Below are positions 10,640 through 54,347 of a stretch of DNA of 64,000 nt, one piece after another. The stretch is from Arbacia lixula (lineage: Eukaryota > Echinodermata > Echinoidea > Arbacioida > Arbaciidae): the NCBI GenBank assembly GCA_963669155.1, contig OZ022577.1, positions 12,457,395 through 12,521,394 of the forward strand, in the 5' to 3' direction. The notes under the pieces were generated by a model. The model ran no database searches. It had not been told where the DNA came from and saw only the letters and a program-made list of their open reading frames with translations. A program made the translations under genes and the position numbers. Every line of letters starts with the position of its first letter. The stretch's first letter is position 1.

Positions 10640-10920
10640 CATACACTGTAGACGTTGAGGTGCTAATGCACTTTGGTATCCCACATATATAATGCACACA
10701 ATGGGAACGCTGCAGTACTGATTGTCGTCGGCAGAAAGTGACCTAGAAATCACTTTTTTGGACAAATTAAGCAGCGAAAATTTTGTTTAGGGTTAGGGTT
10801 AGGGTCAGGGTTAGGTTTAGAATTAGGTTTAGGGTTAGGGTCAGGGTTAGGTTTAGGGTTAAAAATTCATAAAACTAGTGGGATACCAAAGTGCATTAGC
10901 GCCGACGTTGACAGTGTACA
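10640..10920. mobile_element. Small inverted-repeat element containing a TTAGGG-like array
   Basis: The inverted ends share GCTAATGCACTTTGGTATCC (left, from about 10660) and GGATACCAAAGTGCATTAGC (right, about 10881-10900), plus an outer ACACTGT word. The interior first has AGAAAGTGACCTAGAAATCA, then about 75 bp of degenerate TTAGGG/TCAGGG/TTAGGT repeats at about 10787-10862. A second, incomplete copy lies at about 29228-29400. Confidence 0.75.
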
Positions 10921-13890: not shown

Positions 13891-16800
13891 TTACACCAGC
13901 TGTTCGGAAGGGACGAAGTTTCGCGAAGGTTTGTCTTGAGGAGGCGGGTTCACTACCGCGCTCACTGTCTTCACGTTCTCTCCTTCCCCAGCCACCGCGC
14001 CACCATCACCCAAGCCGTCAGACGATGCACGCCGCTTTGCCGGCGCCGCGGCGGCACTTTCTTCACCGCACATGGCGCCGACGGTGCTGGGGGCAGAGCC
14101 GACGGGTTCCGTAGCCCAGTCCTTGGCCCAGTCCTTGTAAGTCTGCCAGTAGTTCGCCTCTTCGGTCGCATCCACGTCAAAGCCGGACTTGGAGTTCGTC
14201 CTCCTGCATCCAGTGATAACATAAGTCACGGGGAAATACATAAAGAAGCCGGAGAGACTTTTCTATACTTTTCCTTGGTGATTAAGTTCGCGATGATTGT
14301 TTTCTCTTCTGCAATGGTAGCACGCCTTTAAGGGATAGTTCACCCTGAAATTAAGTTGGTTTCAATAAAAGGAGACACATGAAAGAAACATTCGTGAAGG
14401 TTTGATGAAAATTCGCCAAAGGATAAGAAAGTTGATATGATTTTTTTTTAAGTTTGATTTTGTGACGTCATCTGCGAGGTGCTCTGCCATTGTTTTTTTT
14501 TCGAAAATTTTCTCAAAAAATATCCTTTCACCTGTGCATTTGATACATCATTAGAAATACGTTTTACACACATGCATGTACTGTATATGAACATCACCAT
14601 TCAGTTGTCAAAACATAAAGACAGTAATTTATGGAATAATCTGGACAAAACTTTATGGGAGAGCACCTCGCACGTGACGTCATAAAATTGAAAGTTCAAA
14701 AGATCATAACTTTCTTCTCCTTTGACGGATTTTTGTCAAAGCTTCACTAAATAATTGTTTCTTTCGTGCCTCGATCCCTGCTTATAATGAAATCAACTTA
14801 TCTTCAGGGTGAGCTATTGTTAAATACCATCTACAGTGAACGACAGTGTCAATAAGATTATTTTGATGACAATGGTCAATGTATAAGCATTCACTGGAGG
14901 ATTAAATAAACTCACGTATACTTTGCTTAATATAACGCCCACGTATCCGTAGAAGAGTCTTGTATTTCTATTTTCATTCACCATGGATTTCCCTTTAATA
15001 ACATTTAAAACAAGTATTCATGTATTTTTAATTTGTACCTATTTTTTGCGCAGTAAAGTGTTAGCACGATGAGCAGAATGACAAGAAACGCCGCCACGCC
15101 CGTACAGATGAAGATCGTCAGCTCCACTTGCCTGTCCGTCATTCGACCTAAAAGACAAGTGAGTCATTTGATTTATAATAATTATGACCTATTCAGAGAG
15201 TGGATGTGGATAAGGGGAAATTCCAAAGTAATAAGTATTAAGAGTGGTAACTGAAATAAACAAAATATTACTAATTTTTAAGAAGTTGATACAAAAATAC
15301 ACATTGTGGTGGTATTAATGTGTACCAATAAATGCACATGTTGTTTATTCAGTTTATCAGATATTGCCTTGCCTTTAAAGGAGGCTAATCTTTATTCATT
15401 TTATGAGGGATCATGACATACAGGAAAGGAAATCTCACCTCTTTCTGGGATTTTGCTTTTAGTCACAAGCACGCCTCTTAATGAAGTCGTAGATTTACTC
15501 TCCCTTGTGGTAGTCATGGATGCTGAATCAACCTGACCATCTGGAAAAGCGGTAGTTGTTCCAACGTTTGGTGTTGACGCATCCGTGTAATCGAGCATGG
15601 TGACAAACTCTTCTATTTCTGTGATGTAGGGATCTGTAATTACGATTGCTTGATCAAATACAGTAATAACTTCATCATCACTCGGTATGTCTGACGAGTC
15701 ACTAAGGGGAAATGTCAACCTGGGCCTCTCTGCATCCGTTTTTCTGGTCTGTGTATCAACATCCACAGAGGATTGATCAACTACAGATGACTCAAAGACC
15801 GAAGATTCGTCGTCACCGCCAAGAAACACCCTGAAGGCAGTATCACTGTACGATGAATTTCCCCATGTGTCATTTTCAGGAAAGCCCTGGGGTATACCTT
15901 GCGAGAAATTATACCACATTTTGAAGCCGTTGTGAGTCTGAGTGCGGATGCTCCCCGATATGAACTTGATAGTTGCGGATTGCGCAGCCGGTATGGGTGC
16001 TGATGCATCGTCACCTGCGCAATAACGTTTCTGGAAGAAGCCGTCTCCTGCAAAGAGCGTGACCTGAACATGAGTGTCCGAGAGAAGACACGTCCGTCTA
16101 TTCCTGGTTCTGGTGGCGTCCAGATCTAGGAAGTGGAACCCAAGGCTCACGTACTCGCCAGGTTCCGATAGCATAGTCCATACACATTCAGAACTTGGCG
16201 GATAAGGTCGAGGGAAATCGTCTGCTGGCAATATACCAGAATTACCATGGATTAAGTACTGACAGTTAGACGGTTTGAGGATCTCCTCGGCAGGCTGAAA
16301 CGCTCTCCACGAGACATTGGTGTAAAGATTCGGACACACACATGGGAACTTCAATTCAGCTAAACTACCATTATATGGAACATCAAAAGCAACATACGCG
16401 GCACAAAAACCTCGACCACTACTAAATTGAGAGGAAAATTCTATATAGATCGAATCACCCTGCGTGATGAAGAAATTTTGGCCGTTGGTGTCGCAAAGGA
16501 TGGACAAATCCCCAGAGGTGTTGACACTGAGATAGCCGTAACGTAAGTCACAATTGGATGGTGCACCAAGATCGACATCAAGAAACTTGAGCACAATTCC
16601 TTGTTTGCTCGAAGGAGAGTTAACAATCCAACGACAGGTTGTGTTGATGGGGTAATCATTGGGATAAAAAGGAGATGAAAATGAACCGAATAAATTTACA
16701 AAACTTGCACCGCACTCGTCTGTCCTGGTTCCCTGGCACATATCTTCTTCCGTTACAAGAGGAGCCAACACTGTAGGTGTCACTGATGAGGATTGCTGGG

Positions 16801-19800
16801 TTGAGGGCTCTATTGGCGGCGTAGATGCAGCGGCCGTTGGTGGTATTGTTCTCAAGATTGGCTTCTCTGTACCAGCAGGTTTCAGTGTATAATAAGCCTG
16901 AAAACCTTTGCCGGTTGAGCTGCTGTTAAATTCAATTTCTACAGCATTCGAAGGAATTGCTAACTCCTCAACCGCATTGTGTGAACCGCACATCATCATT
17001 TCTTCTCTCGTCACACAGCTTCTGATCAACAAAAAGGCATCAGCATCACTACAGGATGGGGGCGATCCTTCTCCTAAATCAAAATATTTGAAAGTCAGGT
17101 CGACTTCCACTTCACCCCCACGAATAACCCACAAGCAGTGCGAGCCTGCAGGAAACGGGTCTGGGAAGAATGGTGAAGCAAGCCAATCCCTGTCCTTTGA
17201 CGAATCCACATACCACTGAGACCAGACGTCACCAATTAAGCATCTGCTCATGAGAGCGGGGAGAGAAACAGATCCATTTGCGATTCTGCTTTCTACTTCA
17301 CTATTTGCGTTACATTGCGTGTTTGTCTCCGATTCAAGTGTGAACATGGCGAGAAAGCCTCGACCCTGTCCCAGTCGACCAAACATGGATACCTTAAACA
17401 TCCCGTTTGGAAATGTGTAAGACAAGCCTTCCCCTCTCCTACCACACAATATAATGTCTTCTGAAACGAAGTCTGTTATAGTTACATAAGAGTATCGGGT
17501 GTCGCAGATATCGAGATATGAAGAATCAAGTTCAAAGTCTCTAAACGTGAGATTAATGGAGGTATTCCCTTCTGCCATTACCAGCCAACACGACGTGTAG
17601 TTCGCAGGATAATAACGAGGGAAGTTTGCGGTGGCAAACGTCCCACCCAACTGGTCATCTGCAAAAAGCACTGTACATTCAGACGAGGGCATCGCGGACG
17701 AGGGCGTGGCGGACAAGGGCGTCGCGGACGTGGGCGTCGCGGACGAGGGCGTCGCGGACGGGGGCGTCGCGGACGAGGGCGTCTCGGACAAGGGCGTCTC
17801 AGACGAGTGCATCGCGGACGAGGGCGTCGCGGACGAAGGCGTCTCGGACAAGGGCGTCTCAGACGAGAGCGTCGCGGACGAAGGCGTCGCGGAGGCGGGC
17901 ATCTCAGACGAGAGCGTCTCAGACGAGGGCGTCTCGGACGGGGGCGTCTCAGATGAGGGCATCGCGGACGAGGGCGTCGCGGACGAGGGCGTCGCGGACG
18001 AGGGCGTCGCGGACGTGGGCGTCTCAGATTTGGATGTATGGACATCCCCAATTCGTCTTCTAAATGGGTCATCATCACCATCGATAGAAGTGTAGTTTAC
18101 TCTTATTCCACGGCCACCCTTCTTGTCTCTTGGATTAAAAGTGAACATCATTTTATTAGTTCTCGATGTAGTGTTGGAATACGGAAGCGCTCCACAGTAG
18201 ACCTGATAGAGAGAGAAGTCTTGATTTGAGTCATCCGGTGCCGTTGGGGTGAGAATTGTCAGTTTGGGGGTCCTGTCGCTGCAACTAACTGGAGATGAAT
18301 AACCGAGATCAATATCTACAAACTGAAGAAGAATTCTGTTCCCTTCAATCACTGTTATGTCCCAAGTCGTTTGGTATGGGGAGTATTTATCCGGATAACC
18401 TATGGAGGTGAATGTTCCGGAATGACCTATCATATAGTATGTCATCGTCAAATATTGCCACATGTCGATAATCTCACGTAAATCTAAGAGCCAGCTGTCA
18501 ATGTCGAGCATGTCCTGCCTCGAAACCCTCAACTGCGCAACAAAGCCGTGCTGAACTTGAGGAGACCTTTGATAGAAGAGATCGATGCGATGGGTTGAGG
18601 AGAACCTAGACCCCTCTGATTGATTGGAACAAAGGAATGTTTCTTTTATTGTTTCTCTATCTTCCCAAGCGCGTATTCGGATAAAAGAATGCGCTTCAGC
18701 ACAATTATCCATGTCGCTGGGAACAGATAAGCCAATCTCGAGAAAAGTAAGTTCCACCGTCTCGTTCCTGTCCAGTTTCAAAGACATAGAGCATGAAGAG
18801 TTGTCAACAGGAACTCCGATGCCAGATCTGATGAAATTTCTATCCAGAACAAGACAGCTATCGTCACCGAAACCCGTTTCGTCTGAGTCGTCCGATCCTG
18901 AAAATTCGACATCACTCGACTGTTCTTGATCGTCAGCCGGTCTCACGTCGTCCAAATAATTTATGTTCGTGTACCACAATGTCCAATTATTCTCAGGGAA
19001 TTGCCGATTGAATGTAATCGATGTCTGGTTAGCGACCGTCATGAAGGTGATGCTAGATGGACGCGATGGAGTTTGAATCGCTGGGCAAAATGTATGTATT
19101 GTCCTAATTGGCCTCACACTGGGCTCACTTTCTGATAGTCTAATGAATGGTTCAGGCTTACGGAAGCACTGATTTATAGATGCTGGAACCCAAGTAGTGT
19201 CGTTGAATATGATATTGATCAGAAATCCCTTCGGAGCCAAAACGACGCAACGTCTGCCTCCAGCATTTTTTGAATCGATCATACCAGAAGAATTGTGTAG
19301 TTCATAAATACACATTGAGTTCGGTCTTGCGGCTCTCTTAGAAATGAACGACAGCCCCTTGTGTAGCAAGTACTCAGCCGCTTTCCCTTCTTCGTCAGGA
19401 AAACTGAAATCTGGAGAGAAAAAAAAACATAAAAAGTCTGAAAATGGAATGTTCTGTACATCAGTATATGGAGCAAATTCAAAAATGAGATGCAACATGC
19501 ACCGTTATTGTCATGCAGTGCATTATAAAACAAAATAATTATAATAATTATAATAATTAGATAGATTAATGACACAATAACGACATCATAATTAATCGAT
19601 CATACTTGGGATGGTAAACGAGTTAACATTCAAGGAAGACAACCTTAACACGCGAAAGCCCTACAATCATTTCTTCAATAAAATAATACACTGTATGAAC
19701 AGTGCATTCAGTGCGTAGTTTCACTTTTGATCTTGCCTTGTATTCCGATGATGTACCAGTTATGCACTCGTGCTGGCACTAGCCTGGTCATCTCCTTCTA

Positions 19801-22800: not shown

Positions 22801-25800
22801 AAGACACCCAACACTGTCGTAGGATTCAAATAATGCATGGAAAACGTACTTCGCCTTATTTTACCTCTTAAGATTACTTTTATTTTCAATTGCAAATCAA
22901 AGTTAACAATTATACCTTCCATCCTCAATCTGATTTTACCTTTCCTTTGCTTCTTTTAAAACAATTTTTGTACCTCCAGCCTTGCGGAGAAAACACTTTC
23001 TTTAAAATCATACTGTATGAAAGTTTCTCCAAAAAAAAACAAAATATATGAAGGGAAAAAAGGTGGTTTAATCATTCTTTCAGAATGAATGCGCCAATAA
23101 AAATACAACATCATGCATTGTATTTCCATGCAATGGTCAAATGATCATGTTTTCATTACGATACAACATACCCCTTTTCAGTATAAAGAGGGTTTGATGA
23201 TTAGATGAAGAAGACGGTGAATATCAAAGGGATTCTAAAGTGTTGTCCCTTCCACTTCCCACTCACTTCCCTTAACAGCAGCAAAATTAGTGTTCGGTCG
23301 GCAGGTGCAAATACCATATCCGTTCCTGTGCCCTGTTGCATAAAACTTCCCATTGGTGGTAACTTTGTGCTATCAATGGCAACCTCTATGGAAATATCGA
23401 ATTTGATTGGCTGTCGCGCGGTGTTACCATGGTAGTTACTATTGATGACAGAGTTACCATCAATGGTAAGGTTTCATGCAACGGGGCCTTAGACCCACTT
23501 ACCCTGTGCCGAATGTTGACTATCGGCGAGACCCCGGTGTTCCTGGCTAGCGGAGAAGATATCGTCCTGTGGGGAGTTTAATGAAGAAATAAAGTGTACA
23601 TTTTGCCCCATCGAAATCCATGACAATGATGGGATCATGGTTTTGCCATTACACGTACCATCATCATACGCCTTGCTGTAATTTCGTATCTTCTAATATA
23701 GAGCTGATCTGGGCCATGTTGCATATAGGTTTCCAATTATTGTAACTCACTATCAATGGTAATTTCCATGGCAACATCCAATGAGCTCTCATCATTGCAC
23801 CTGTTGCCATGGTAGTTACCACCGATGGTAAATTACAAAACCTACATACGTATCATCAGACGCCTTGCTGTCCTTTTGTATCTTCTAATAAAGAGCTGAT
23901 CTGGGCCATGTTGCATATAGATTTTCAATTATTGTAACTCACTATCAATGGTAATTACCATGGCAACAGCCAATGAGCTCTCCTCATTGCATCTGTTGCC
24001 ATGATAGTTACCACTGATGGTAAATTACAATAATTGAAAACCTATATGCAACATGGCCCTGGAAGATGAACTATAAAGTTGTGTGACGATGACAGTGGTG
24101 TAAATGATGGCTGAAATATTCGGGATATGAACGAAAACGCCAAATCATTCTAACAACAAAAAGTTACTAGTAAGTATTCTGTGAAGCTGGATAGGTTCCG
24201 CATTTTGATATAGCAGTATGCAATGGGAGGCGTGTGGTCTTCTCTATGGGTGTGGCAGGACACGAGGCAAATTATACGTGTTAAGTATATATTCTGGTCG
24301 CAGTCCGCAGAAATTATAGTTATACGCTCCCAAGATTTATTCAATTTTTGCAGGGGTGGGTGGGGTGTGTAACGGTTTCAGTAAGGAATCATGAAAGTGT
24401 GAAAGAGAAATGTAGGTGTGGATGTGGTGTAGAGAGAGAGAGTGAGGGGTGAAATGAGTTCGGAAAAGTCTTTCAAGAAGGAAAGAGGTGATTTTTGTAG
24501 CGATATTGTAAGCTATAGTATTTTCTGTTAGTACGATTGTTCTGTTACTAGATATATATAATTGGAATATATAGTTGGAGATTAGATACATGATGATTAG
24601 ATACATGATGAGATCAGATCAGATCGATTGGCGTTACACTATATACGTCCAGTGCCCATTTTGTCTTCTATTTTTTTTTCTTGTTTTGGACTGTAAACAT
24701 CATGTGAAGCTATATTTGACCTCAACCATATTCAATTTGGCTCGTCTGACTTTATATGTGCAAAGTGCAATGAACAACTCTTTCCTTTCAATCATGTTAT
24801 CGAAGATGATGAGTTCTTATGGACTCTCCAGCAGTTTTTTCATATGAGTAAGATTATTCCATATGCTAATGTTCAAAATCTTAAAATTAATCCTTTTGTA
24901 ATGAATAATAATCTTGAAGACGTGCAATATTCCCTCAATTTACAATCTCCCGAAGAAGATAGTGTAGAGAATACTTTTGATTTTCCAACAAATCCATGTT
25001 CATACTATGTTCCTGATGATTTTTATACCAAATTCAAACATTTTGAAAATAGATTATCGTTATTACATTTGAATGCTAGGAGCCTTTGCTCAAACTTCAA
25101 CAAACTTGAGGAATTATTGACTTCTCTAGATTTTTCTTTTTCTGTTATAGGAGTATCAGAAACCTGGCTGAACTCTTCCATGTTAATTTCGATGTATAAT
25201 ATACCCAATTATTCATTTGTGCATACATGTCGTGATTCAAAGATTGGCGGAGGCGTTGCCTTGTACATTTCTGAAAACGTTGATTTCTTGGAGAGACCAG
25301 ACTTAAATATAAATAACTCATTCCTTCAAACTATCTTTATTGAAATCGTTAATGTCAAATCAAAATATGTAATTGTCGGGAATGTCTATAGACCTCCCAA
25401 TACTGATATTGATTCTTTTTTACACGAGATGAATTCTCTCCTTTCCCATATACATAGTGAAAATAAAAAAAATTATTTAATGGGAGACTACAATATAGAT
25501 TTGTTAAATACTGAACATCACACTAAAAGTAAAGATTTCTTCGATACTATGTTCTCCTTTAATTTATTCCCTGTAATCACTAAGCCTACACGCATCTCTT
25601 ATAAATCTGCTACCATAATAGATAATATTTTTACAAATGCAATCCAATTTGAACATGAAAGTGGATTACTATACTCTGACATTTCGGATCATTTTCCAAT
25701 ATTCTATGTTGCTAAAAAGTTTAATAATAATTTTGTTTCAAGGGAACCTCGTCTTAAGAGAATGATAAATGATGCTGGGATCGATTGCTTAAAAAATAGA

Positions 25801-28800
25801 TTGAGCTGTTTAGATTGGACACCAATTTACGCATCGAAAGATATCAATCATGCTTATGACCTGTTTTACTCCATTTTTTACTGTGCTTATAATGAATGTC
25901 TTCCTATTGTTCGCAATAAAACAAAGAAAGTAAGATTCCATAAACCCTGGATTACTTCTGGTATTATAAAATCTATTAACAAAAAAAACATGTTATATAA
26001 AATCTTTCATAAATACTCTGGACCAGCAAAGATAAAAGAAAGGAAAGAAGAAAAATACAAAAGTTATAAAAACTGTTTGATTAAACTTATTCGCTTTGCA
26101 AAAAAAGAGTATTATACTAAAAAATTTAACATCTTAAAAGGTAACATGCAGAAAACATGGCAAGAAATTAATCATATATTAGGAAAAAAAAGTAAGGTTT
26201 CTCTTCCAACAAAAATGTATTTTAACAATGAATCCTTTGAAAGCAACCAAATGAAATCTGAACATTTCAATAGATATTTTGGTAACTTAGGTAAAAATCT
26301 TGCTCAGGTCATCCCTGACTGTAGCACTGATTTCATGAGCTTTCTAGGAGGGAATAATATTCAATCAATATTTTTAAAACCTACCAATATACATGAAGTA
26401 TTGAAGATCTGCTCCTCCTTGAAATCAACGTTTTCCTGTGGCTCTGATGATATTATCCCATCTATTGTGAAAAAATGTATCTATCAATGTGTCCATCCAC
26501 TGTGTCATATATTTAATATGTCTCTTGAATATGGTGAAGTTCCTAAAGCATTTAAAAAAGCCAAAATTGTTCCAATCTTTAAAAAGGGTGACCGTAAAGA
26601 CATAGTCAACTATAGACCAATTTCTGTTTTACCCATCTTCTCGAAGATATTAGAAAAAATTGTTTTTGAACGTTTGTATAGTTTTCTGAATTATAACAAC
26701 ATATTGATTTCACAACAATTTGGTTTCCGTAAAAAATATTCAACGTATATGCCAATTTTTCATATGTGTGATCGTATAATGCAAGAAATAGACAAGGGGA
26801 ATTTTACCATCGGTATATTCTTGGATCTGTCAAAAGCATTTGACACCGTTGACCATGACATACTTCTTAAAAAAATGAAACATTATGGAATAAGAGGTCT
26901 TGCTCTTAACTGGTTTGATAATTACTTATCAAATCGTATGCAGTATGTTATGGTCGACGGTGTCAAATCACATTTCAGTCATGTATCATACGGAGTTCCG
27001 CAAGGGTCCGTCCTCGGCCCGTTGCTTTTTCTGTTGTATATAAATGATCTTGTAAACTGTTCCTCAATTCTAAATTTTATACTCTTTGCGGATGACACCA
27101 GTATTACTCTTTCTCACCAAAATATCACTTCTCTAATTGATACCATGAATAAAGAACTTCATAATGTTGTTACCTGGCTCCAGTGCAATAAACTATCTTT
27201 GAACTTGGAAAAAACAAAATGTGTACTTTTTAAAACACATGCTAAAAAAGTTGGTATTGACATCCCACCAATTATAATGGATGGTAGGATTATTTCTCAG
27301 GTGTCAAATATTAATTTTTTGGGCATCAAAATAAATGAATCCCTTTCCTGGAAACCTCATATTGATGATTTATGTACACGCTTATCAAGAACTACTGGTG
27401 TCCTCCGCAGATTGAATTTTATTTTACCCAGACATGTTTTGATTTCATTATATAATACTCTGGTTTTACCCCCATCTCACTTACTGTTGTATGTTATGGG
27501 GAAATGGATTTAAAACTCATTTACATAAATTATTTCTGACTCAAAAAAGGGCAATAAGATCGGTTTGTAATGCACACTTTAATAGTCACACAAACAGGTT
27601 ATTTCTTGATTGTAAAATATGTGACTTGGTCCTTTTGTACACCTATATTTTTATGTATAATTACCATTCAAATTCCTTGCCAAATATTTTCAATAATCTT
27701 TTCAGCACAAACGCCTCTTATCACTCATACTTTACGCGTCATTCAGCAGATCTTCACCATTATTTTCCTAAAACTAAAATTACTCAAAATTCTTTGCGGT
27801 ATAGGGGAATCAAACTATGGAATGAATTGAATAATGATATTAAACAAAGCAAAACTGTTAATAGATTTAAAAAACTCTTGAAATATGAAATGTTCTGTCA
27901 ATATGAAAATCTTGCCAAAATAACTAATGAATAGCATACCGTAGGTCTCTATAATATCTTTTTACTATACATGTACCATATTTGTTCTTTGCACTGCGAG
28001 GATAACGTGTTTTGCAGTGCACTTTAGTGTTATTTTCTCTCTCTCTCTCTCTCTCTTTCTTTCCCTGTATGTTTTAAATTGATTTGTATTATATATGTCA
28101 TGGTGGTGCCCCACCTACAAGTTCCTTTGAACTTCCAGGGGCTCCTAATCCCATGTTTTATCAAAGTTTGTATATTTATGTATTTTTTATGACTGATTGA
28201 ATAAATTTGAACTGAACTGAACTACATGCAGGTAAGGATGTGAGATGGTGTTTTTGTTAGATGGGTTCTGAGCTCATGGTTGTAGAGTGTGTGTGTGTGT
28301 ATGGGGGGGGGGGGGGATGGGGATACCAGCTGGCCGATGAGTTGCGATGCGGATATAGTTCCATTTGACAGGTGAGAGGGACGCGGAGGCGAGAAAGACA
28401 AATACATCCAGCATTTCGCTGGTTCGAAAGAATTAAATTGATATTACTTACATTGCCTTTTACAATCTTAAACCCTCAATCAACGGTGTCGGATTAATCA
28501 GAGATAAGGGAGAAAGCACAATGGATTACTATTATTCATAATATATCACCATTATCATCATCGCAAGAACATTGTTCAACACGTCTAGTACCGCCCTGCC
28601 AATCGTCACCATCCACATATCATCCATTATTCATTCACGCACCAGTCAGCTTGTCTAATTACAATCGTATGTCATTGCCATAACTGCAAGGGCGGAAATC
28701 GAAAATAGTGTGTGTGTGTGTGTGGGGGGGACATTTGATATTGTGCCCCCCCCTTCAAAATGGTGGGGGGACGCGTCCCCCCGCCCCCCCCCCCCCGGGA

Positions 28801-37261: not shown

Positions 37262-37288
37262 GGCTTGGAGTGAGAACACACCTTCACG

Positions 37289-43200: not shown

Positions 43201-46200
43201 ATGTGATTCTGAAATCATGATGCAATCTGTATTGCTGTGTTACATACCAAACCAGGTATTTCAGATTTCAAGTCCAGAATATATGTTTGCAGTGATTTAA
43301 CATTTTTAATTGCAAGTACAGACTGGTTATTGTAGAACTTATTTTTAACCCAAAAATTTACAAGAAAAGAAGGGACTATCTGTACTCGAGTGTATGAATT
43401 GTTCAAGGCATGCTTTTTGCACTTAAGGTATTTAACCCAAAGCCTGCCCCAATAGAGCAGCTAATCCTTTATTGTGCCCCCCCCCCCCTCAATTCCGCAC
43501 TAGGTGCGTCTTCATTAGCCCGATCAGACGAAATAGCGAGCTATTTTTCTGATCCGGGGAACTAGCCTGAAGTTGCAATCGCGTCTTCATTAGCTCGAAA
43601 CTCGGGATACGTAAGCTCGAGCTCGGGTTGCATAAATTATCCTGAGTTTCGCACATACCAGCAGTGTGCAACAGGAATAGGCCATGACCGCATGGCTTCG
43701 GTTGTGAGCTCGCATTCACGCACGTGTAAAAACATGTTACGTAATCAATGCCTCGTGGGCGCTGATGCATGCCGGGATCGAGAAATTTTCAGGCTAATGA
43801 AGACGCTCCGAACTAGCTCGAGCTATTTCGCGAACTAGCTCGAGCTAGCTCCATCTAGCCCAAGATTTCTTGGGAAATTTTCTCGACCAAATAGCTCGCT
43901 ATTTTGCCTGATCTGGCTAATGAAGACGCAAATAGCTAGCTATTTCGTGATCTGGCTAGCTAACCCGATCAGAACAAGCTCGCTATTTTGCCCAGCTCGA
44001 GCTAATGAAGACGCCCCTATAGTGCCAATTTAATTTTAAGGATTTTTCAGTTGTGCTTTAATTTCTGTGTTGGCATTTTGAACCACTGAATTTTTAAACC
44101 AATACTCTTTTTCAGAAAAGTTGTGAGCAATTTTATCACCTTCCTATGATACCAAATTGTACAGCAAAGTTAATTTGTTAATAAACTAATAAACATTCAG
44201 TTGCACAAGTTGACTCCGATTGATTTAGACTGATGGTCAGTACGGTAAGTTAGTTTGAATGTAGTCCATGGGTATGCTGACCATGATAGCCATTGATTTA
44301 ATTTATGTCATGCATTGTAATAGCTTTGAATTAAAGGGGAAGTTCACCCTAAAATTATTTTGGTTTCAATAAAAAGAGGCAAATGAAAGAAACATATGAG
44401 TGAAGGTTTGACGAAAATCGGTCAAAGGAAAAGAAAGTTATTTGATTTTAAAGTTTTGATTTTGTGACGTCACATGCGAGGTGCTCTCCCGTATGTTGTG
44501 TACATTTTTTTTCGAAAATGTGCATTTTCTCACAAAGATATGCATCCTTTTACTCGTGCATTTGATACATTATTAGAAATACGTTTTTACACACATACCT
44601 GTACGAAAAGAATTATTCTGTTGTCAAAAATAGAAAAAAAAGCAATTTATCGACTTATTTTGTACACAACATATGGGAGAGCACCTCGCACGTGACGTCA
44701 CAAAATCAAAACTTTAATATCAAATAACTTTCTTTTCCTTTGACCGATTTTCGTCAAACCTTTACTCATTTGTTTCTTTCATTTGTCTCTTTTTATTGAA
44801 ACCAAAATAATTTCAGAGTTAACTTCCCCTTTAATTTTTGAGAGTTGTGACCCTTAATTTGTCTTGCTGAAGAAAAACACATGGTGTACATCTGTTTGAG
44901 GTAGATACACAGAGAAGAAGTCAAACTGTGATGGTGTCTTTGGTATACTATCATCACTTATTTAATTATCCTTTATCACATTTCTTGCAGACACAGTCTT
45001 CTACAGTAACGAAAACTACCACAGAGCGTGTGTACTCCACCAGATCACAGATCAGATCAGGGAAGCAGCAGTTGGAGCTACCAGTAGAGATGAAGTCAGG
45101 GAAGGTCGGCAAGACAACACACCTTGAGTTTGGAGGGCCCATTGGTAAGAGGCAATTCTTTGATCATTTGTGTGTTTGATGATAAAAATGACGGCCAGAG
45201 TTTACATGTCAAGGTCAAATTGTGAAATATTGCTATCATGATAGTATGTGAAAATATGACCAAATATCACCAAACTTGGTACAATGACATTTGAAAGGTC
45301 TATCATATAATTAAGTTATATATCATAGCCAAATAGCAAGTTTTCCAGGCATTGTGGAATTGACTTTAATAGAGATTAAATGGCAATACTTCAATATCTG
45401 CCCAGGAGGGCGGAGGCATATCAGTCGACTAAGGGCAATCAAATTGTTGTACTTTAATTCTTGATTTTGCTAATCCTAATCCTTTGATCTCATCCTGCAG
45501 GCACCTTCTTCACTATCATTAGCCTTCCGTTGGTGGTGTATTACCTGTACTTTGCTTGCCAGCCCGATGCCTGCAAGCTGACCTACCAGCCCCCTTTCTC
45601 CCTGGACTGGAGGGACTACTACGACCAGGAGGCCTACCTCTTCTTCCTGGGCTGGTTCCTCTTCCAGGTCATCCTCGCCATGATCCCCATCGGGAAGGTA
45701 AGCAAATGACCAGCAGATGGAACTTTTACTCTTTTGTTTCTTTCTTGGGAGGAAATAACCTACGTACAAAGGATCCATGAAAAAAAAGGATAGTAGAAAC
45801 ATATGATAATAAGCTTCAGAGTGTAATAATATAATATTGACTGGCCTTGAGGGGGATACAACATATATTGCCAGAACTGTATTCATATTGCCCTAGTCGA
45901 AGATGAGGGCAATATGAATTCAGTGAGGGCAATATAGGTCGTATCTCCCGAAAATAAGATACAGATACAGATGATAAGTTCTTATACCCTAGTCACACTA
46001 GAGACGGAATAAGCCGGAATGCCGTCAGAATGAAAACTCTTGTCCCATTCCTGGATATTAAAAGTGCATTATAAAAATTCTGACTGCATTCTGAGTGCAT
46101 TCTAAATATTTGGGTCCATTCTTGTGTCCGGCCCGAATATTTTGCTCATGCTCAAAACTTACGAGGTGCATTCGAACTGGAGAAATATCGAACGGCATTC

Positions 46201-49200
46201 AAAGTGCAGTCCAACAGCACTCTGACTGCAATCCAAATATTCTGACGACATTTCAACAACACTCGAAACATTCCTATCACATTCAAAAGCACGGCTAGCT
46301 ATTGCTGCAACGTCAGTCAGCATTGAGGAGTCACTGAGGAGCATTGAGGTCATGCTGCCAAGAAAGATCAATTTGAAATTCCCTCCTGATTGTGGCTCGA
46401 ATTTTGAAAAGTTTTCATTTAGGCTGGTTCTGCTTGATTCCTGCTGATTCCGAATAAGTGTGACGGGGGCTTTAAGTTTGACCCCCTTGGCTTGATTACC
46501 ATACAAAATATTCATGAGGAAGATAATGTATATAAAATAGCTGTTTAGAATCCTATATATTTGTGTATATAGACTAAATTTTCTTGTAATCAGATTGAAT
46601 ATAATTAGGAGGTGAACAGCAGAGACGAACAATGATCATGCCAATTAGAGACCTACGCAGCAGTCAATGTGAATTGAAAAAAATTTAACTTTGGCTATAA
46701 AGAATTTGGAATGATTCGATGTTCCTATGCAACAGCAGTTGCCAAAGCAATTTGACAGAAAGTTGATGAGTGTCTCTTGTCATTCCTTGCAGCTGGTGCA
46801 AGGGCTCCCTCTGAGGTCTGGAAGGAGACTAAACTACAGGATCAATGGTAAGTGTGCTGCTCAAGATCATGTCATGTAAAATCAGTCACATGATGTGAAT
46901 ATCAAACTGACCATTGATACTTTCAATCAAATAAAGTAAACTCTGTGGGAGGTAAGAACTGTAACTTGTTCAAAGTATGATTTGGAGAGGACTGTCATTG
47001 TGACCCATTGACACTACTCTCACATTGGTTTTGCCACTTTGCGGCAGATAGCAGTTCAGTTTTGTTTCAGGCAAAATTTAAAAGTGGATAGACTTTGGAT
47101 GATTCAGATAAAATTGTGAATTTGTATTGCCTCATGCTGAATGAGTGATATGACGCCAATGTCCTGGTCCTCCCATTCTTTTCTACAGGCCTGTTCGCAT
47201 TGGTGGTGACCTTTGCGACCTTTGGGGGCATGGTGTACTACAAGTGCCCTGTGACCATGATCGTCGACAAGTTCCTGCCATTGATGACAGCCTCGCTGCT
47301 CTTCTCTCTGCTGCTCAGCATCGTGCTGTACATCAAGGCACGCAGGGGCCCCAACTCCGCCCTGGCCCCAGGGGGCAACTCTGGTAAGAACCTCAGGAGA
47401 TGAACTGCCTCAAATGCCATAGTGTGTTCCTCTGTCAAATGCTACTTACTGAAATACCACTTTCAGGCCCCGACATGCTCTCAAAGCTTTTTTACTGATT
47501 CTGATTCAAAATGGATATTTAAGGAAAGTGAAATGAGTTTTACAAACGGACAGATTTTCAATATATATCCTTTAACCATTCGTAATGATGTCGAACAGGG
47601 CTGATCTTGTTAGATTTGCACAATGAGTAAAGAAAGAAAAAAGATGGATGCTCAAGCCACACCCTGAATTGAGTTATTAAAAGTAAGATGAACTGTAACA
47701 GGTAATAGATGAAAAAAGGGTTTGAAAATTGTCATCCTTGACCCTCAGCTCTTGCATTGCCAATTGTCTTGCTCATGTGAAGTGTACAAGGAACATGACA
47801 AGTATGCAATGTATGTCACACATGTAAAGACCTTTTTGTTATGTATACAAAAAGCATGCACATCGTTTGAACAATATGTTAATAATGGGATCCCCCAACT
47901 TGTCTGAGGTTTGTCTGAGTAGCAACAATGAATTAAATTCAGTGTGCATTCCATCAATTGAAACTGAATCACTATATACAAGTAAATGTCACAACTTGTT
48001 ACTTGCAGTTAGGGAGAAAGTTAGGAATATGTTATGGAAACAGCTTATTGAAATGAAATATCTTGTTACAACTGTTGGTGAATGCTACTAACTATTTGTC
48101 TGACTGTCTCTCTCTTGACCAGGCAACTTCGTGTATGACTTCTTCATGGGCCATGAGCTGAACCCCCGCATCGGCAGCCTGGACCTCAAGTTCTTCTGCG
48201 AGCTTCGTCCTGGCCTCTTCCTCTGGGTACATTCTTCACTCCTTCCGTGCAGCTCTCAGTTTAAAGGAGCAAGATTGCCACACAAAGAGTTAATCACAGA
48301 CTAGCTATGTCATTGTTCATCAGGTGCATGGAGAGGAACACATTTAGTGTTTTGTACAACAAATTATGCCTACAAAACATAAAATGGACAGATCTGTATC
48401 AAAATTAATTGTACTATGGGCAGGGAATCCATGCTGTGAGGAAATCATAGAGAGACTATTTGACAGAGAAGGGCCTGATATGTTAGTGCTTTTGAGTGAT
48501 ATTTGCACTCAAATTTATGTTACTTATTGCATGTGGTATTGATATTCCTTTAAAGTTAAGACATTGTATTCATCTAACGTGACATCAACTCTCACCAATG
48601 CCCTGACGTCATCAGACAACACATCATACATGCCGTATACACACAGTCTTGATGCTATTTTGGTGGACCTTTCTCCTGGCTCTCACAACAAATTACACAT
48701 GTAGTACTGTTGCTCCTCTGCTAACTTTCTGTGTCGCATCATATTAGGTCTATTATAAGTCCGGTAGTGCTCCGTGTAGCACTCAATCACTGCCATATTT
48801 TCATATTTGCACTTTTGACCCCACTCTCCCATGCAGGCCCTGTTCAACTTCTGCTACCTGGTCAAGGTGTGGACAGCCTTCCCAGACAACCCTCCCTGGA
48901 ACCTCATCATGGTCTCTGTCTTCCAGTTCATCTACGTCTTCGATGCCCTGCTCTACGAGGTAGGTGGCCCTGGCGCCCGCCTCAATTTTATGAATTTTAA
49001 CTTCCATAAACTGAACACTTGATTCTTGATGCACAACTAGTTTTAGTGTGTTTATTTTGTGACTTCAGGGCCATGTTGCATATAGGTTTTCAATTATTTT
49101 TAACTTACTATCAATGGTAACTACTATAGAATCAGGTGCATTAATGAGAGCTCATTGGCTGTTGCCATGGTAATTACCATTAATGGCAAGTCACAATAAT

Positions 49201-52200
49201 TGAAAACCTATATGCAACATAGCCCAGGCTTAAAAGGTAGCATTCACAGAATTTGTTTTTGTGTGTGAGCCCTGCCAGGTACTTGGGTATGCCAATCTTC
49301 AGGTGAAGAGTTGAAACTTTCACCATGGCACAAGTTATTTCGACAAATGTGCAAACATTCAGTTCATGTGGCTATTGGCAAAAATGTAACTGGCATCCAA
49401 GGGAATACATTCACCCATTTCCAGTATAGATTTGCTTTCAATGAATGTCAGGTGTGGACACATATAATCAGACATGCAGATTGATTTTTTAAATATTTTT
49501 CTATTAACAAAATTATGCATCAGTAGGATGCTGCTGAATGTGGCAGATTAATTGCTGCTCAATGTGATTTAGGTGCATTACGTGTTACAAATGAATGTTT
49601 TACTGTGGCAAAAAAAGGAAAATTCAGGAAATATAAAGATAACCATGTGACAAATCTAAGCCATACAATCAAACAAGCAGACTCCAGAGAAGGATTATCC
49701 ATGTTTTTGAGTACATAATAAAAAGTATGATATAACACTTCTATAAATGTATTTTGTTTTCATCTACCTCTTTGTGTAGTCTGCCATCCTGACCACGATG
49801 GACATCATCCAGGATGGCTTTGGCTTCATGCTGGTGTTTGGTGACCTGACCTGGGTGCCCTTCACATACAGTCTGCAGGCACGCTACCTGGCTGAACACC
49901 CCCCTAACTACCCAGACTACTGCCTCATACCAGTCGTCCTGCTCTTCTGTGAGTACACATCTCTCCTCTTTCCTTCTCCCTCTCCTTCTATCCTACCTAT
50001 CATTCCATCCCCCAACTACCCAGACTATAGCCTCATACCAGTCATCCTGCTCTTCTGTGAGTAGACATCTCTCCTCTTTCCTTCTCTCTCTCCTTCTATC
50101 CTACCTATCATTCCATCCTCCCACCTACCCAGACTACTGCCTCATACCAGTCATCCTGCTCTTCTGTGAGTAGACATCTCTCCTCTTTCCTTCTCCCTCT
50201 CCTTCTATCCTACCTATCATTCCATCCTCCCACCTACCCAGACTACTGCCTCATACCAGTCGTCCTGCTCTTCTGTGAGTAGACATCTCTCCTCCTTCCT
50301 TCTCTCTCTCCTTCTATCCTACCTATCATTCCATCCTCCCACCTACCCAGACTACTGCCTCATACCAGTCGTCCTGCTCTTCTGTGAGTAGACATCTCTC
50401 CTCTTTCCTTCTCTCTCTCCTTCTATCCTACCTATCATTCCATCCTCCCACCTACCCAGACTACTGCCTCATACCAGTCGTCCTGCTCTTCTGTGAGTAG
50501 ACATCTCTCCTCTTTCCTTCTCTCTCTCCTTCTATCTTACCTATCATTCCATCCTCCCACCTACCCAGACTACTGCCTCATACCAGTCGTCCTGCTCTTC
50601 TGTGAGTAGACATCTCTCCTCTTTCCTTCTCTCTCTCCTTCTATCCTACCTATCATTCCATCCTCCCACCTTCCCAGACTACTGCCTCATACCAGTCGTC
50701 CTGCTCTTCTGTGAGTAGACATCTCTCCTCTTTCCTTCTCTCTCTCCTTCTATCCTACCTATCATTCCATCTCCCACCTACCCAGACTATTGCCTCATAC
50801 CAGTCCTGCTCTTCTGTGAGTAGACATCTCTCCTCTTTCCTTCTCTCTCTCCTTCTATCCTACCTATCATTCCATCCTCCCACCTACCCAGACTACTGCC
50901 TCATACCAGTCATCCTGCTCTTCTGTGAGTAGACATCTCTCCTCTTTCCTTCTCCCTCTCCTTCTATCCTACCTATCATTCCATCCTCCCACCTACCCAG
51001 ACTACTGCCTCATACCAGTCGTCCTGCTCTTCTGTGAGTAGACATCTCTCCTCTTTCCTTCTCTCTCTCCTTCTATCCTACCTATCATTCCATCTCCCAC
51101 CTACCCAGACTATTGCCTCATACCAGTCCTGCTCTTCTGTGAGTAGACATCTCTCCTCTTTCCTTCTCTCTCTCCTTCTATCCTACCTATCATTCCATCC
51201 TCCCACCTACCCAGACTACTGCCTCATACCAGTCATCCTGCTCTTCTGTGAGTAGACATCTCTCCTCTTTCCTTCTCTCTCTCCTTCTATCCTACCTATC
51301 ATTCCATCCTCCCACCTTCCCAGACTACTGCCTCATACCAGTCGTCCTGCTCTTCTGTGAGTAGACATCTCTCCTCTTTCCTTCTCTCTATCTCCTATCT
51401 TACCTATCATTCCATCCTCCCACCTACCCAGACTACTGCCTCATTTCAGTCGTCCTGCTCTTCTGTGAGTAGACATCTCTCCTCTTTCCTTCTCTCTCTC
51501 CTTCTATCCTACCTATCATTTCATCCTCCCACCTACCCAGACTACTGTCTCATACCAGTCGTCCTGCTCTTCTGTGAGTAGACATCTCTCCTTCTATTCT
51601 ATCTATCATTCCATCCTCCTACCTACCCAGACTACTGCCTCATACCAGTCGTCCTGCTCTTCTGTGAGTAGACATCTCTCCTCTTTCCTTCTCTCTCTCC
51701 TTCTATCCTACCTATCAGTCCATCCTCCCACCTTCCCAGACTACTGCCTCATACCAGTCGTCCTGCTCTTCTGTGAGTAGACATCTCTCCTCTTTCCTTC
51801 TCTCTCTCCTTCTATCCTACCTATCATTCCATCCTCCCACCTTCCCAGACTACTGCCTCATACCAGTCGTCCTGCTCTTCTGTGAGTAGACATCTCTCCT
51901 CTTTCCTTCTCTCTATCTCCTATCTTACCTATCATTCCATCCTCCCACCTTCCCAGACTACTGCCTCATACCAGTCGTCCTGCTCTTCTGTGAGTAGACA
52001 TCTCTCCTCTTTCCTTCTCTCTATCTCCTATCTTACCTATCATTCCATCCTCCTACCTACCCAGACTACTGCCTCATACCAGTCGTCCTGCTCTTCTGTG
52101 AGTAGACATCTCTCCTCTTTCCTTCTCTCTCTCCTTCTATCCTACCTATCAGTCCATCCTCCCACCTTCCCAGACTACTGCCTCATACCAGTCGTCCTGC

Positions 52201-54347
52201 TCTTCTGTGAGTAGACATCTCTCCTCTTTCCTTCTCTCTCTCCTTCTATCCTACCTATCAGTCCATCCTCCCACCTTCCCAGACTACTGCCTCATACCAG
52301 TCGTCCTGCTCTTCTGTGAGTAGACATCTCTCCTCTTTCCTTCTCTCTCTCCTTCTATCCTACCTATCATTCCATCCTCCCACCTTCCCAGACTACTGCC
52401 TCATACCAGTCGTCCTGCTCTTCTGTGAGTAGACATCTCTCCTCTTTCCTTCTCTCTATCTCCTATCTTACCTATCATTCCATCCTCCCACCTTCCCAGA
52501 CTACTGCCTCATACCAGTCGTCCTGCTCTTCTGTGAGTAGACATCTCTCCTCTTTCCTTCTCTCTATCTCCTATCTTACCTATCATTCCATCCTCCTACC
52601 TTCCCAGACTACTGCCTCATACCAGTCGTCCTGCTCTTCTGTGAGTAGACATCTCTCCTCTTTCCTTCTCTCTCTCCTTCTATCCTACCTATCATTCCAT
52701 CCTCCCACCTACCCAGACTATTGCCTCATACCAGTCGTCCTGCTCTTCTGTGATGATACATTTCTCCTCATTACCGCCTTTCTTTCATTCTCCTTCTGCC
52801 ATTTCATGTACCTCACAGACCATCTTCATTTTGTATTTTTCTGTAATCCACCCGCCTTTATTTTTCTGAACCATAATTTTGCTCAAATTTGTGCCCATCT
52901 TTGCATCTTACTTCTTGCTTTCTTTGCAAGGACTCAATCTCTCACATTACATTTTGTAATGAGTTATGTATATCCAGAAGGAAAACACAATCGTATTGAA
53001 GTTCTGCTTTCCCTTTATCCCTCTTCCTCACAGGCCTTGGATATTGCATCTTCCGTATGTCCAACAGTCAGAAGAATTCCTTCAGGCAAAACCCACATGG
53101 CAAGAGTGTCTCAAGTAAGTACCTTCTTTAGATAAGATTGTGAAACATCTTGAACAAATAATCAGTGCTTCTCTCTGCCAATTCTCCTCCCTTCCATCAT
53201 TACCTGGTGAGCTTAAAAACTAAGGGCTTGCCTTCTCCCCCCTAGTTTTTTACCCCTTTGTCTTCTGAGCATATCCATGTGTGCTGGTAAGATTGTCTAA
53301 TTCTTCAGCATAGAGAGGACTATTCACACACAAGTACAATAGCACTGTTTGCAACATACTTAATTGTTTACTTATACCGCACTTCTCCTGTATGGCCCAA
53401 AGTATGTACAATATTTCCAGTGTTACAGTATAGATAGTGGAATATGATTTTGTTTTACACGTATTTAGTAAAATATTTATTGGTGAAATATAAAATTGTC
53501 TATTTAATTCTTATCATGCAAATTGTATATTTTTGTAACAAGAGTTTAATTCCTCTGTCCCCCTCCTCTCTCTCTCTCTCTCTCTTTCTCTCCTTCCCCT
53601 AGACCTCCAGACCATCCCCACAGACACGGGCAAGCGACTGCTGATCTCTGGCTGGTGGGGTTTTGTGAGGAAGCCTAACTACCTGGGTGACCTCCTCATG
53701 GCTCTCTCATGGTCTCTCTGCTGTGGTAAGCTTTACCCATTCTCTCCCGCATACATGGAAGATTTCTGTCTACTTCCTGTAACAGCAGCCCACTAGGTTT
53801 ATGTCATTTATATTTATTTTATTCACTTCAAAAGAAAAACAGAAACATGATAAATCAATTGATCAGAAACATGAGACCAAAACAAATTTGAATCTTGAAA
53901 GTGTAGTTTCCCTTTGTACAACAAATACACTTTCAAAATGTTAACAAATGTACAAAAAATGAATAACTCACTTGGATTCTGTGGGAGACTCTTGGAAAGA
54001 ACCACATTTTTTTCCCTATTTTTACAAATCCACTGATTTGATCACACATCTTTATTTCAAGATGGACTGTTGAAAAGGTTTTCATTGTATCAAGACCCCA
54101 AGGCTGGATTTGCGCCGATATAAACTGTATTCACATTTGTTCCTGTGCCTGTTTTCCTCCACCCTTCTCCCCACCCACCCATCCAGGCTTTGGAAGTATC
54201 ATCCCCTACTTCTACCCCATCTACTTCCTCATCCTGCTGGTGCACCGGGAGCGCAGGGACGACGCCTCCTGCCGCCAGAAGTACGGTGGCGCCTGGCTCA
54301 AGTACTGCGCCACCGTCAAGTACCGAATCATCCCATACATCTACTAG
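37289..54347 (+). CDS. LBR: Lamin B receptor (Tudor + RS + sterol C14-reductase domains)
   Basis: Coding exons: 37289-37447, 38081-38293, 44991-45144, 45501-45697, 46793-46847, 47189-47383, 48123-48226, 48837-48959, 49780-49948, 53034-53114, 53603-53725, 54187-54347. All have GT/AG borders and matching phases; the sum is 577 codons plus stop (human LBR is about 615 residues). Residues 1-53 are a Tudor domain ([24 protein letters not shown]). Residues 54-124 are an Arg-Ser region ([20 protein letters not shown]) that in vertebrates is phosphorylated by SRPK and mitotic kinases. From about 177 there is a multi-pass sterol reductase: [46 protein letters not shown], and the end YRIIPYIY. By my alignment to human LBR, the Greenberg-dysplasia residues Asn547 and Arg583 are kept (Asn509, Arg545), so a working reductase is likely. 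In vertebrates it sits in the inner nuclear membrane and binds lamin B, chromatin and HP1. Intron 2 is full of MITEs, and intron 9 begins with an amplified donor array. Confidence 0.96.
40307..40815. mobile_element. TTAA-type fold-back MITE, copy 5 (LBR intron 2)
   Basis: The left end is TTAAGTGAACTGTTCACCCTT and the right end CTTATTTTCATGGTAAACTATCCC. The inner blocks TGACGTCACATGTGAGGTGC and GCACCTCCCACGTGATGTCA face each other. More diverged at its ends than the copy at 41059. Confidence 0.85.
41059..41586. mobile_element. TTAA-type fold-back MITE, copy 6 (LBR intron 2)
   Basis: Begins TTAAAGGGATAGTTCACCCT and ends AGGGTGAACCAGCCCTTTAA, with TTAA at both borders as expected of a TTAA target duplication. 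The inner TGATGTCACATGTGAGGTGC and GCACCTCGCACGTGACATCA blocks are present. Only about 240 bp separate it from copy 5. Confidence 0.88.
42256..42491. mobile_element. Nearly perfect palindromic element of about 235 bp (LBR intron 2)
   Basis: The left arm CATACACTCCAGCTCAAAGG is matched by the right arm CCTTTGAGCTGTAGTGTATG. Long inner pairs include GGAGCCGCAGTTTTAAACC and TTTTGTCCAGTTCAGCATGA with their inverses. The arms face each other across a few bases near AGCCTAAAAAGC. Non-coding. Confidence 0.9.
42837..43012. mobile_element. Left-truncated second copy of the 42256 palindrome
   Basis: It starts inside the left arm (TGGTCCAGTTCAGCATGAAA) and keeps the whole right arm (GGACAAAATATACCACGG, then TTTAAAACTGCGGCTTCTTC) to AGCTGGAGTGTAT. 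The two copies are about 345 bp apart in the same orientation. Confidence 0.82.
43500..44022. mobile_element. Complex inverted-repeat element with internal repeats of its own ends
   Basis: The outer ends are CTAGGTGCGTCTTCATTAGC and GCTAATGAAGACGCCCCTATAG. The GCGTCTTCATTAGC word or its inverse occurs five times (near 43508, 43583, 43794, 43916 and 44001), so subterminal pieces repeat the termini. The interior is full of AGCTCGAGCT and ATAGCGAGCTATTT palindromes and is CpG-rich compared with the intron. No open frame. Confidence 0.78.
44331..44834. mobile_element. TTAA-type fold-back MITE, copy 7 (LBR intron 2)
   Basis: A well-preserved copy: TTAAAGGGGAAGTTCACCCT on the left and TTAACTTCCCCTTTAA on the right, with TGACGTCACATGCGAGGTGC opposite GCACCTCGCACGTGACGTCA. 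It ends about 155 bp before the acceptor of LBR exon 3. Confidence 0.9.
45850..45949. mobile_element. Small inverted repeat of about 100 bp (LBR intron 4)
   Basis: The ends GGGGGATACAACATATATTG and CAATATAGGTCGTATCTCCC are inverted copies. A second pair, GTATTCATATTGCCCT and AGGGCAATATGAATTC, lies inside. Confidence 0.65.
45984..46474. mobile_element. MITE-like element with diverged inverted ends (LBR intron 4)
   Basis: The left end CCCTAGTCACACTAGAGACG, then GAATAAGCCGGAAT, pairs with the right end read inverted: GCCCCCGTCACACTTATTCG, then GAATCAGCAGGAAT. The interior has many GCATTCNAA-type words and no coding frame. The start of the element at 63721 has similar opening bases. Confidence 0.6.
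49068..49225. mobile_element. GGGCCATGTTGCATATAGG fold-back element (LBR intron 8)
   Basis: The left end GGGCCATGTTGCATATAGGT faces the right end ACCTATATGCAACATAGCCC. TTTCAATTATT and AATAATTGAAAA words, and TTGCCATGGTAATTACCA in the right arm, match the copies at 23711-24060. Confidence 0.8.
49905..52756 (+). repeat. Amplified exon-intron junction of LBR exon 9 (about 27 units of 109 bp)
   Basis: The unit consists of the last 39-49 bases of exon 9 (CCCAGACTACTGCCTCATAC ... GCTCTTCT), the 5' splice site GTGAGTAGAC, and about 60 bases of pyrimidine-rich intron (CTCCTCTTTCCTTCTCTCTC ... CCATCCTCCCACCT). The first donor, at 49949, is GTGAGTACAC and is the one that joins correctly to exon 10 (LLF-C-LGYCIFR). 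I count about 25 further copies of GTGAGTAGAC, and a last unit at about 52749 with GTGATGATAC. The first unit is 108 bp; most others are 109 bp; a few have small deletions. The copies are only a few percent apart, so the array is recent or kept uniform. Long frames reading [18 protein letters not shown] in it are repeat by-products. Confidence 0.95.

What the first reader, a model, noticed from the sequence alone, without database searches (positions are those of the whole stretch)
49905..52756. A 5' splice site amplified about 27-fold in tandem inside LBR
The repeat unit spans an exon-intron junction: the end of exon 9, its donor GTGAGTA and about 60 intronic bases. About 26 near-identical donors follow one another with the same exonic context on their left. 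All could compete for the single acceptor of exon 10. The spliceosome must pick the first, or the gene tolerates, or uses, a large set of longer transcripts. I know of no standard class of element for such a donor array. It could act as a buffer, a decoy or a length-variable regulator of LBR output.
Basis: seen in the sequence. Interest (0 to 1): 0.82.

Follow-up and report, generated by a model that had tools for sequence, protein, structure and literature searches.

The report
Sea-urchin LBR splice-junction minisatellite ("mirage")
In a sea urchin gene the junction between one exon and the next intron has been copied 27 times in a row; this is a known but little-studied kind of DNA stutter ("mirage") that the same genome seems to show in several other genes, and the first, original junction is probably the one the cell uses.

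Summary
At 49908-52769 a 109-nt unit (end of a coding exon of a sea-urchin LBR/TM7SF2-like sterol reductase, its donor, intron start) repeats 26.6 times: 27 exon-end copies, 26 exact donors. All 27 matches of the unit reported from the 607-Mb assembly lie here. Donor 1 gives a protein collinear with its closest relatives; donor 2 adds 36 aa; donors 3-27 meet one stop at 50062. The last donor has decayed. It is not unique in kind: of 15 other tandem-donor arrays examined in this genome, 7 start at an apparent coding-exon end (nuclear receptor, sortilin, EGF, Ig and others), an eighth partly; one holds at least 121 donors. Such minisatellites are known in amphioxus as "mirages", reported not to disturb normal splicing (PMC3087553 passages). 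Best reading: a mirage minisatellite, first donor used, others latent. No RNA evidence was available.

The parts
   Evidence: gene model, frame open across ten exons, collinear with relatives
49908..52769 (+). junction-spanning minisatellite, 109-nt unit, 26.6 copies
   Evidence: TRF; unit alignment
49949..49955 (+). donor 1 GTGAGTA, predicted functional 5' splice site
   Evidence: joining to 53034 gives a 453-aa open model collinear with P0001-P0003 around the junction
50057..50063 (+). donor 2; only alternative donor that keeps an open frame when the array is retained (+108 nt, +36 aa)
50062..50064 (+). in-frame TAG met by every model that uses donors 3-27 with retention (101 to 2685 nt before the junction)
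50024..52640 (+). units 2-26: 25 latent microexons (33 nt; 30 nt in units 9 and 12) with CAG on the left and GTGAGTA on the right, separated by 75-76-nt (one 57-nt) intron-like stretches
   Evidence: 25 of 25 single inclusions stay open, 0 of 300 multi-unit exons do
52717..52749 (+). 27th copy of the exon end
52750..52756 (+). decayed donor of unit 27 (GTGATGA; -0.14 bits against 5.13 for the others, recalled matrix)
52750..52818 (+). diverged homologue of the unit's intronic part = probable ancestral intron start
   Evidence: local alignment score 45 against shuffles 25.7 +/- 4.3, 0 of 500 reach it

Best explanation
The feature is a 'mirage' minisatellite: a tandem duplication of an exon-intron boundary in a sea-urchin LBR gene that grew to 27 copies by later block duplications. 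Shown in sequence: the unit, its copy number, all reported matches confined to this locus, latent donor plus acceptor-like signals in the units, decay of the last donor, and a diverged copy of the unit's intronic part just downstream. Inferred: donor 1 is paired with the exon at 53034 in nearly all mRNA, the other donors are latent, mis-splicing to donors 3-26 gives a stop and mRNA decay, and the array is a tolerated mutational by-product because the intact boundary stays at its upstream edge.
For: Array and donors. 27 of 27 reported matches of the unit in the own assembly lie in this array (the tool warns that counts are lower bounds). Donor 1 gives the conserved length: the model aligns without gap to P0001 (Lytechinus pictus), P0003 (Diadema antillarum) and the unnamed close relative P0002 around the junction. 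Block duplications, e.g. a 433-bp exact repeat five units apart. At the downstream edge unit 27's donor is degraded while donor 1 at the upstream edge is intact. Donor positions do not avoid substitutions more than chance: 0 of 19 events in 7 positions, P=0.28. Seven other arrays of the genome start at an apparent coding-exon end. In the nuclear-receptor case only donor 1 of 12 leaves the frame to the next exon open, and the joined exons match Hormone_recep across the junction. Amphioxus mirages have the same anatomy and Adh3 and globin RT-PCR data suggest regular splicing (PMC3087553 passages; PMC3902484 passage).
Against: No RNA data: donor choice is not observed. Donors 1-26 are identical at -3 to +6, so sequence alone does not favour donor 1. 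Acceptors of most units score within the range of this gene's real acceptors, so some use is possible. Donors 2-26 are all intact, whereas 9 of 25 units of the PLC-like array have GC for GT and 2 of 12 of the receptor array have GTGTGG; this could hint at constraint, or at youth. A passage of PMC5389562 says that multiple U1 occupancy affects 5' site choice without lowering efficiency, so a downstream bias is possible.
Confidence: 0.82

Rival explanations
1. The units are spliced as serial microexons at a real level: donor 1 joins CAG of unit k and donor k joins the next unit or exon 10, each adding 10-11 residues (mostly [11 protein letters not shown]) in frame, lengthening a hydrophobic, presumably membrane-spanning segment.
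For: 25 of 25 single inclusions and the inclusion of all 25 (726-residue model) stay open, 0 of 300 multi-unit exons do. Acceptors of units 2-27 score 5.9-10.6 bits (recalled matrix), 83-89% pyrimidine. A TNA branch-like A lies 21-22 nt before the CAG in 26 of 26 stretches, and a full yTnAy site in 7 of 26. Units without unit 1's differences near the CAG, and the ten with T at position 104, score higher.
Against: Frame neutrality has about a 1 in 3 chance; the sortilin-like array lacks it (58-nt exonic part) and its CATTCAG site did not reach 5 bits. 19 of 26 stretches have no full yTnAy. The nearest relatives show no inserted residues at the junction, though they are other species. Amphioxus mirages are reported to leave splicing regular.
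Confidence: 0.1
2. The donor array regulates LBR output by splice-site competition: donors 3-26 yield a stop codon and mRNA decay, so copy number tunes the level.
For: All of donors 3-27 meet the TAG at 50062, 101 to 2685 nt before the junction, which should trigger nonsense-mediated decay (established knowledge).
Against: No conservation beyond chance; last donor decayed; similar architecture in unrelated genes, as expected of a mutational process.
Confidence: 0.05
3. Assembly artefact: the true locus has one or few units.
For: Longest exact internal repeat is 433 bp, beyond short reads; an amphioxus mirage is described as aberrantly assembled in a draft genome (PMC3087553).
Against: Contigs up to 55.6 Mb; units carry private variants and nested block duplications; no N in the window.
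Confidence: 0.03

Closest known systems
Mirage minisatellites of amphioxus (Adh3, globins BflGb6/BflGb9, TnC; PGBD5 compared with them)
   Same: Minisatellite-like tandem repeats that span an exon-intron boundary, AG/GT signals in many units, concerted evolution inside and diverged edge units, authentic boundary retained (PMC3087553, passages; PMC3902484, passage)
   Different: Here an echinoid; 27 units against 6 and 3 in the two BflGb6 haplotypes; 109-nt unit; length polymorphism, somatic instability and regular splicing are reported there and untested here
IFI6 (6-16) minisatellite giving multiple splice donors (Turri 1995)
   Same: A minisatellite provides repeated donors; two downstream repeat units are said to be used as donors (one sentence and citation in PMC4526556; original not held)
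   Different: Human gene, original paper not read; here use of downstream donors is unknown and would mostly give a stop codon
[quoted passage not shown] potato RdRp case)
   Same: Tandem duplication across a splice junction passes splicing signals to the copy; in potato the acceptor side is inherited and a cryptic exonic donor is recruited (PMC4974935, passages)
   Different: Mirror image: here the donor and pyrimidine tract are inherited and the AG comes from exonic Pro-Asp codons; splicing of the new introns is not shown
Internal tandem repeats at exon-intron boundaries of human segmental-duplication genes
   Same: Repeats at boundaries linked to novel introns and alternative splicing (PMC2812944, passages)
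   Different: Human duplicated paralogues with transcript support; here an echinoid gene without transcripts

Membership tests
Mirage minisatellite | Minisatellite-like tandem repeats | tested here: met
   109 nt x 26.6
Mirage minisatellite | Repeat unit spans an exon-intron boundary of a gene | tested here: met
   gene model and unit structure
Mirage minisatellite | Units carry AG/GT splice signals | tested here: met
   26 intact donors; acceptor-like CAG in units 2-27
Mirage minisatellite | Concerted evolution inside, edge units excluded | tested here: met
   11 identical unit pairs inside; unit 27 intronic part diverged, unit 1 with four differences in its intronic part
Mirage minisatellite | Regular splicing not disturbed | tested here: inconclusive
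   predicted protein from donor 1 is collinear with relatives; no RNA
Mirage minisatellite | Length polymorphism between haplotypes or somatic cells | not testable with these tools
   one assembly, one array
IFI6-type donor minisatellite | Several repeat units used as donors in mRNA | not testable with these tools
   no transcripts of this species at hand
Intron gain by tandem duplication | Duplicated segment is exonic and holds AGGT (Rogers form) | tested here: not met
   unit spans the junction; donor context is TCT|GTGAGT
Intron gain by tandem duplication | The new intron is spliced | not testable with these tools
   no RNA

The most novel reading that the evidence does not exclude
Sea-urchin genomes harbour a large standing population of mirages, from a few to well over 100 donors per array, that act as a nursery of new microexons and introns; in LBR some units are spliced as in-frame 11-residue modules that lengthen a membrane helix, with length set by unit number.
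Probability: 0.1. Interest if true: 0.8.

Novelty: new member of a known kind. Interest (0 to 1): 0.46.

Why it matters
It moves the finding from a one-gene curiosity to a recurrent mutational class, and extends that class, which under the name mirage I met in print only for amphioxus (searches; only named sea urchins; the library holds open-licence papers only), to an echinoid genome. One genome with such arrays in apparent nuclear-receptor, sortilin, EGF, Ig, PKC-like and LBR genes, one with over 120 donors, would be a natural test bed for how the spliceosome chooses among identical 5' splice sites and for intron birth by tandem duplication.

Tried and rejected
Considered and rejected: (a) unique element class: rejected after finding amphioxus mirages and sister arrays. 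(b) Selection on the donors: 0 of 19 substitution events in donor positions, P=0.28; in donor plus CAG positions P=0.16: not significant. (c) Dispersed repeat: all 27 reported matches of the unit lie in this array. (d) H-DNA mirror repeat as cause: longest near-mirror in the consensus has arms of 8 nt. (e) Enrichment of donors in arrays genome-wide: AGGTAAGT triplets 48 matches against 260 for the reversed pattern; AGGTGAGT triplets 311 against 178, with most listed rows from one array: no consistent enrichment.

Led nowhere: the CUB-gene ORF found no homologue at E<=0.001, so it did not help to name the species; paper search found no paper and search 45 none to the point; the acceptor-side control pattern (TTTTGCAG triplets) did not complete, so whether acceptor-spanning arrays are as common as donor-spanning ones is open. 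The 55-85 spacing search did not complete either.

Selection to tell: the 48 matches group by hand into 14 arrays; 8 were examined (L033-L040), picked partly because the printed letters looked coding; 6 were not examined. Of only the first rows were listed; all 7 arrays in them were examined (L041-L047). Splice scores rest on human matrices and a U1 5' end recalled from memory. Limits: L037 has no Pfam hit above cut-off; L045's C1_1 hit is below the curated cut-off (23.7 against 26.5 bits) and the PKC label is recalled; L038 has only four AGGTAAGT and 1.9 copies by TRF; L033's 5' part abuts an LTR-like element and its PLC-X reading is recalled, not tested; L040's ankyrin reading (other strand) is recalled; L041-L044 and L046 show no clear coding exon by eye, without a family search.

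Full report
What is there. TRF finds one array at 49908-52769, period 109, 26.6 copies. Splitting at CCCAG|ACTA and CTTCT|GTGA gives 27 copies of the exon end and 26 exact donors GTGAGTA; the 27th reads GTGATGA. Units 1-26 share 94.6% identity on average, with 11 identical pairs (such as 3=10, 8=11, 9=12, 19=24) and a 433-bp exact repeat five units apart: growth by block duplication, as in minisatellites.

Gene and species. Ten exons from 44991 to 54347 join to an open 453-residue sterol-reductase model (Pfam ERG4_ERG24); a Tudor exon lies upstream near 37274 (LBR_tudor). The best named relatives are sea urchins: Lytechinus pictus 82%, Diadema antillarum 80%. The window lies on a 39.9-Mb contig of a 607-Mb assembly. 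Joining donor 1 (49949) to the acceptor before 53034 gives a protein that aligns without gap with P0001, P0003 and the unnamed P0002 around the junction.

What the unit contains. The exonic part is at least 41 nt (CTACCCAG + 33 nt) and perhaps about 50; the rest is intron start. Because the copied exon end begins with ...CTACCCAG|AC and is preceded by a pyrimidine-rich stretch (83-89% C/T), each copied unit also has an acceptor-like site: 5.9-10.6 bits for units 2-27 with a recalled human matrix, against 8.1-14.3 for the ten real acceptors of this gene; the donor scores 5.13 in all of units 1-26. A TNA branch-like A stands 21-22 nt before the CAG in 26 of 26 stretches, a full yTnAy site in 7 of 26. 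Units 2-26 are thus latent microexons of 33 nt (30 in units 9 and 12) between intron-like stretches of 75-76 nt (57 in one). 25 of 25 single inclusions are open and in frame, the inclusion of all 25 is open, 0 of 300 exons spanning several units are. If a downstream donor is used with retention, donor 2 adds 36 residues and donors 3-27 all stop at TAG 50062.

Signs of function or neutrality. Nineteen substitution events among units 1-26: 6 in 33 exonic positions, 0 in 7 donor positions, 9 in 49 middle positions, 4 in the last 20; zero events in the donor has P=0.28 under uniformity, so no constraint is shown. The intron just behind unit 27 (52750-52818) is a diverged homologue of the unit's intronic part (score 45, shuffles 25.7 +/- 4.3, 0 of 500), probably the ancestral intron start; its donor is dead (-0.14 bits), while donor 1 at the other edge is intact. 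This polarity fits use of the first donor.

Not alone. All 27 matches of the unit reported from the own genome lie in this array (lower-bound search). A pattern of three AGGTAAGT at 93-123 nt gave 48 matches in 14 arrays by hand grouping; I examined 8. Five start at the end of what reads as a coding exon: nuclear receptor ligand-binding domain, 105 nt x 11.9 (L034; Hormone_recep 6.2e-12); sortilin VPS10, 104 nt x 5.6 (L035; 5e-30 for two joined exons); calcium-binding EGF exon (L036; 1.7e-7); a coiled-coil-like exon, 98 nt (L037, no Pfam hit above cut-off); leishmanolysin-like, four donors, 1.9 copies by TRF (L038; 6.2e-11). A sixth, PLC-X-like by recall, 54 nt x 25.1, has an LTR-like element at its start (L033). 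L039 and L040 are not of this kind. A second pattern with AGGTGAGT gave 311 matches (list cut short); all 7 arrays in the listed part were examined: a PKC-like C1 exon end (L045; C1_1 4.4e-5, below cut-off) and an Ig exon end (L047; I-set 9.8e-7) qualify, five show no clear coding exon. The Ig array has a 40-nt unit, 133.5 copies and 121 exact AGGTGAGT in the stretch read, which ends inside the array. In total 15 arrays examined: 7 at exon ends, 1 partly, 7 not or unclear. In the receptor gene only donor 1 of 12 keeps the frame. In 20 stretches of 10 kb, none of 34 arrays with period 20 or more exceeded 5.4 copies, so long arrays are uncommon in that sample. The reversed-pattern controls (260 against 48; 178 against 311) give no consistent sign that donors as such are favoured in arrays.

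What is known. Boundary-spanning minisatellites are called 'mirages' in amphioxus Adh3 and globin genes; many units carry AG/GT signals, haplotypes differ in unit number, somatic instability is reported for Adh3, regular splicing appears undisturbed, and a model of intron gain from them is given (PMC3087553, passages). TnC mirages and PGBD5 repeats are described in PMC3902484 (passage). A human IFI6 minisatellite with multiple donors is cited in four papers (original not held). Potato RdRp shows intron gain by tandem duplication in the mirror arrangement (PMC4974935, passages). Human boundary repeats linked to novel introns: PMC2812944 (passages). My searches showed me no report of such arrays in sea urchins, but only named them and the library holds only open-licence papers.

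Verdict. A real and clear array, best filed as a mirage minisatellite of a sea-urchin LBR gene, with donor 1 in use and the rest latent (0.82). Its function as a regulator is unsupported. The wider point, several such arrays in one genome, one with over 120 donors, is the more interesting outcome.

Noticed in passing
L047/L048 (own assembly C5:160004-165300 and beyond): Ig-domain exon end followed by a 40-nt unit repeated at least 133 times with at least 121 exact AG|GTGAGT donors; larger than the LBR array.
   Followed up: partly
L034 (own assembly C22:15594501-15597500): Nuclear-receptor ligand-binding exon end amplified 11.9 times (105 nt); only donor 1 of 12 keeps the frame to the next exon.
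   Followed up: yes
L033 (own assembly C2:39174001-39177000): PLC-X-like exon end (recalled reading) with AG|GTAAGT, 54-nt unit x 25.1; 9 of 25 units have GC instead of GT; an LTR-like element abuts the array.
   Followed up: partly
L035, L036, L037, L038, L045: Further apparent exon-end arrays: sortilin VPS10, EGF, coiled-coil-like, leishmanolysin-like, PKC-like C1.
   Followed up: partly
own assembly C4:3912904-3913960: A sterol-reductase paralogue (46% over residues 309-453) whose matched stretch appears to lack the introns of LBR there.
   Followed up: no
window 24697-27934: LINE-like element with endonuclease and reverse transcriptase domains.
   Followed up: no
window 15401-19504, minus strand: Long CUB-domain ORF with a 15-bp repeat (GACGAGGGCGTCGCG, 17682-18023); the protein search returned nothing at E<=0.001, which is odd for CUB domains.
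   Followed up: partly
window 10787-10861: Interstitial TTAGGG-like telomeric repeat.
   Followed up: no
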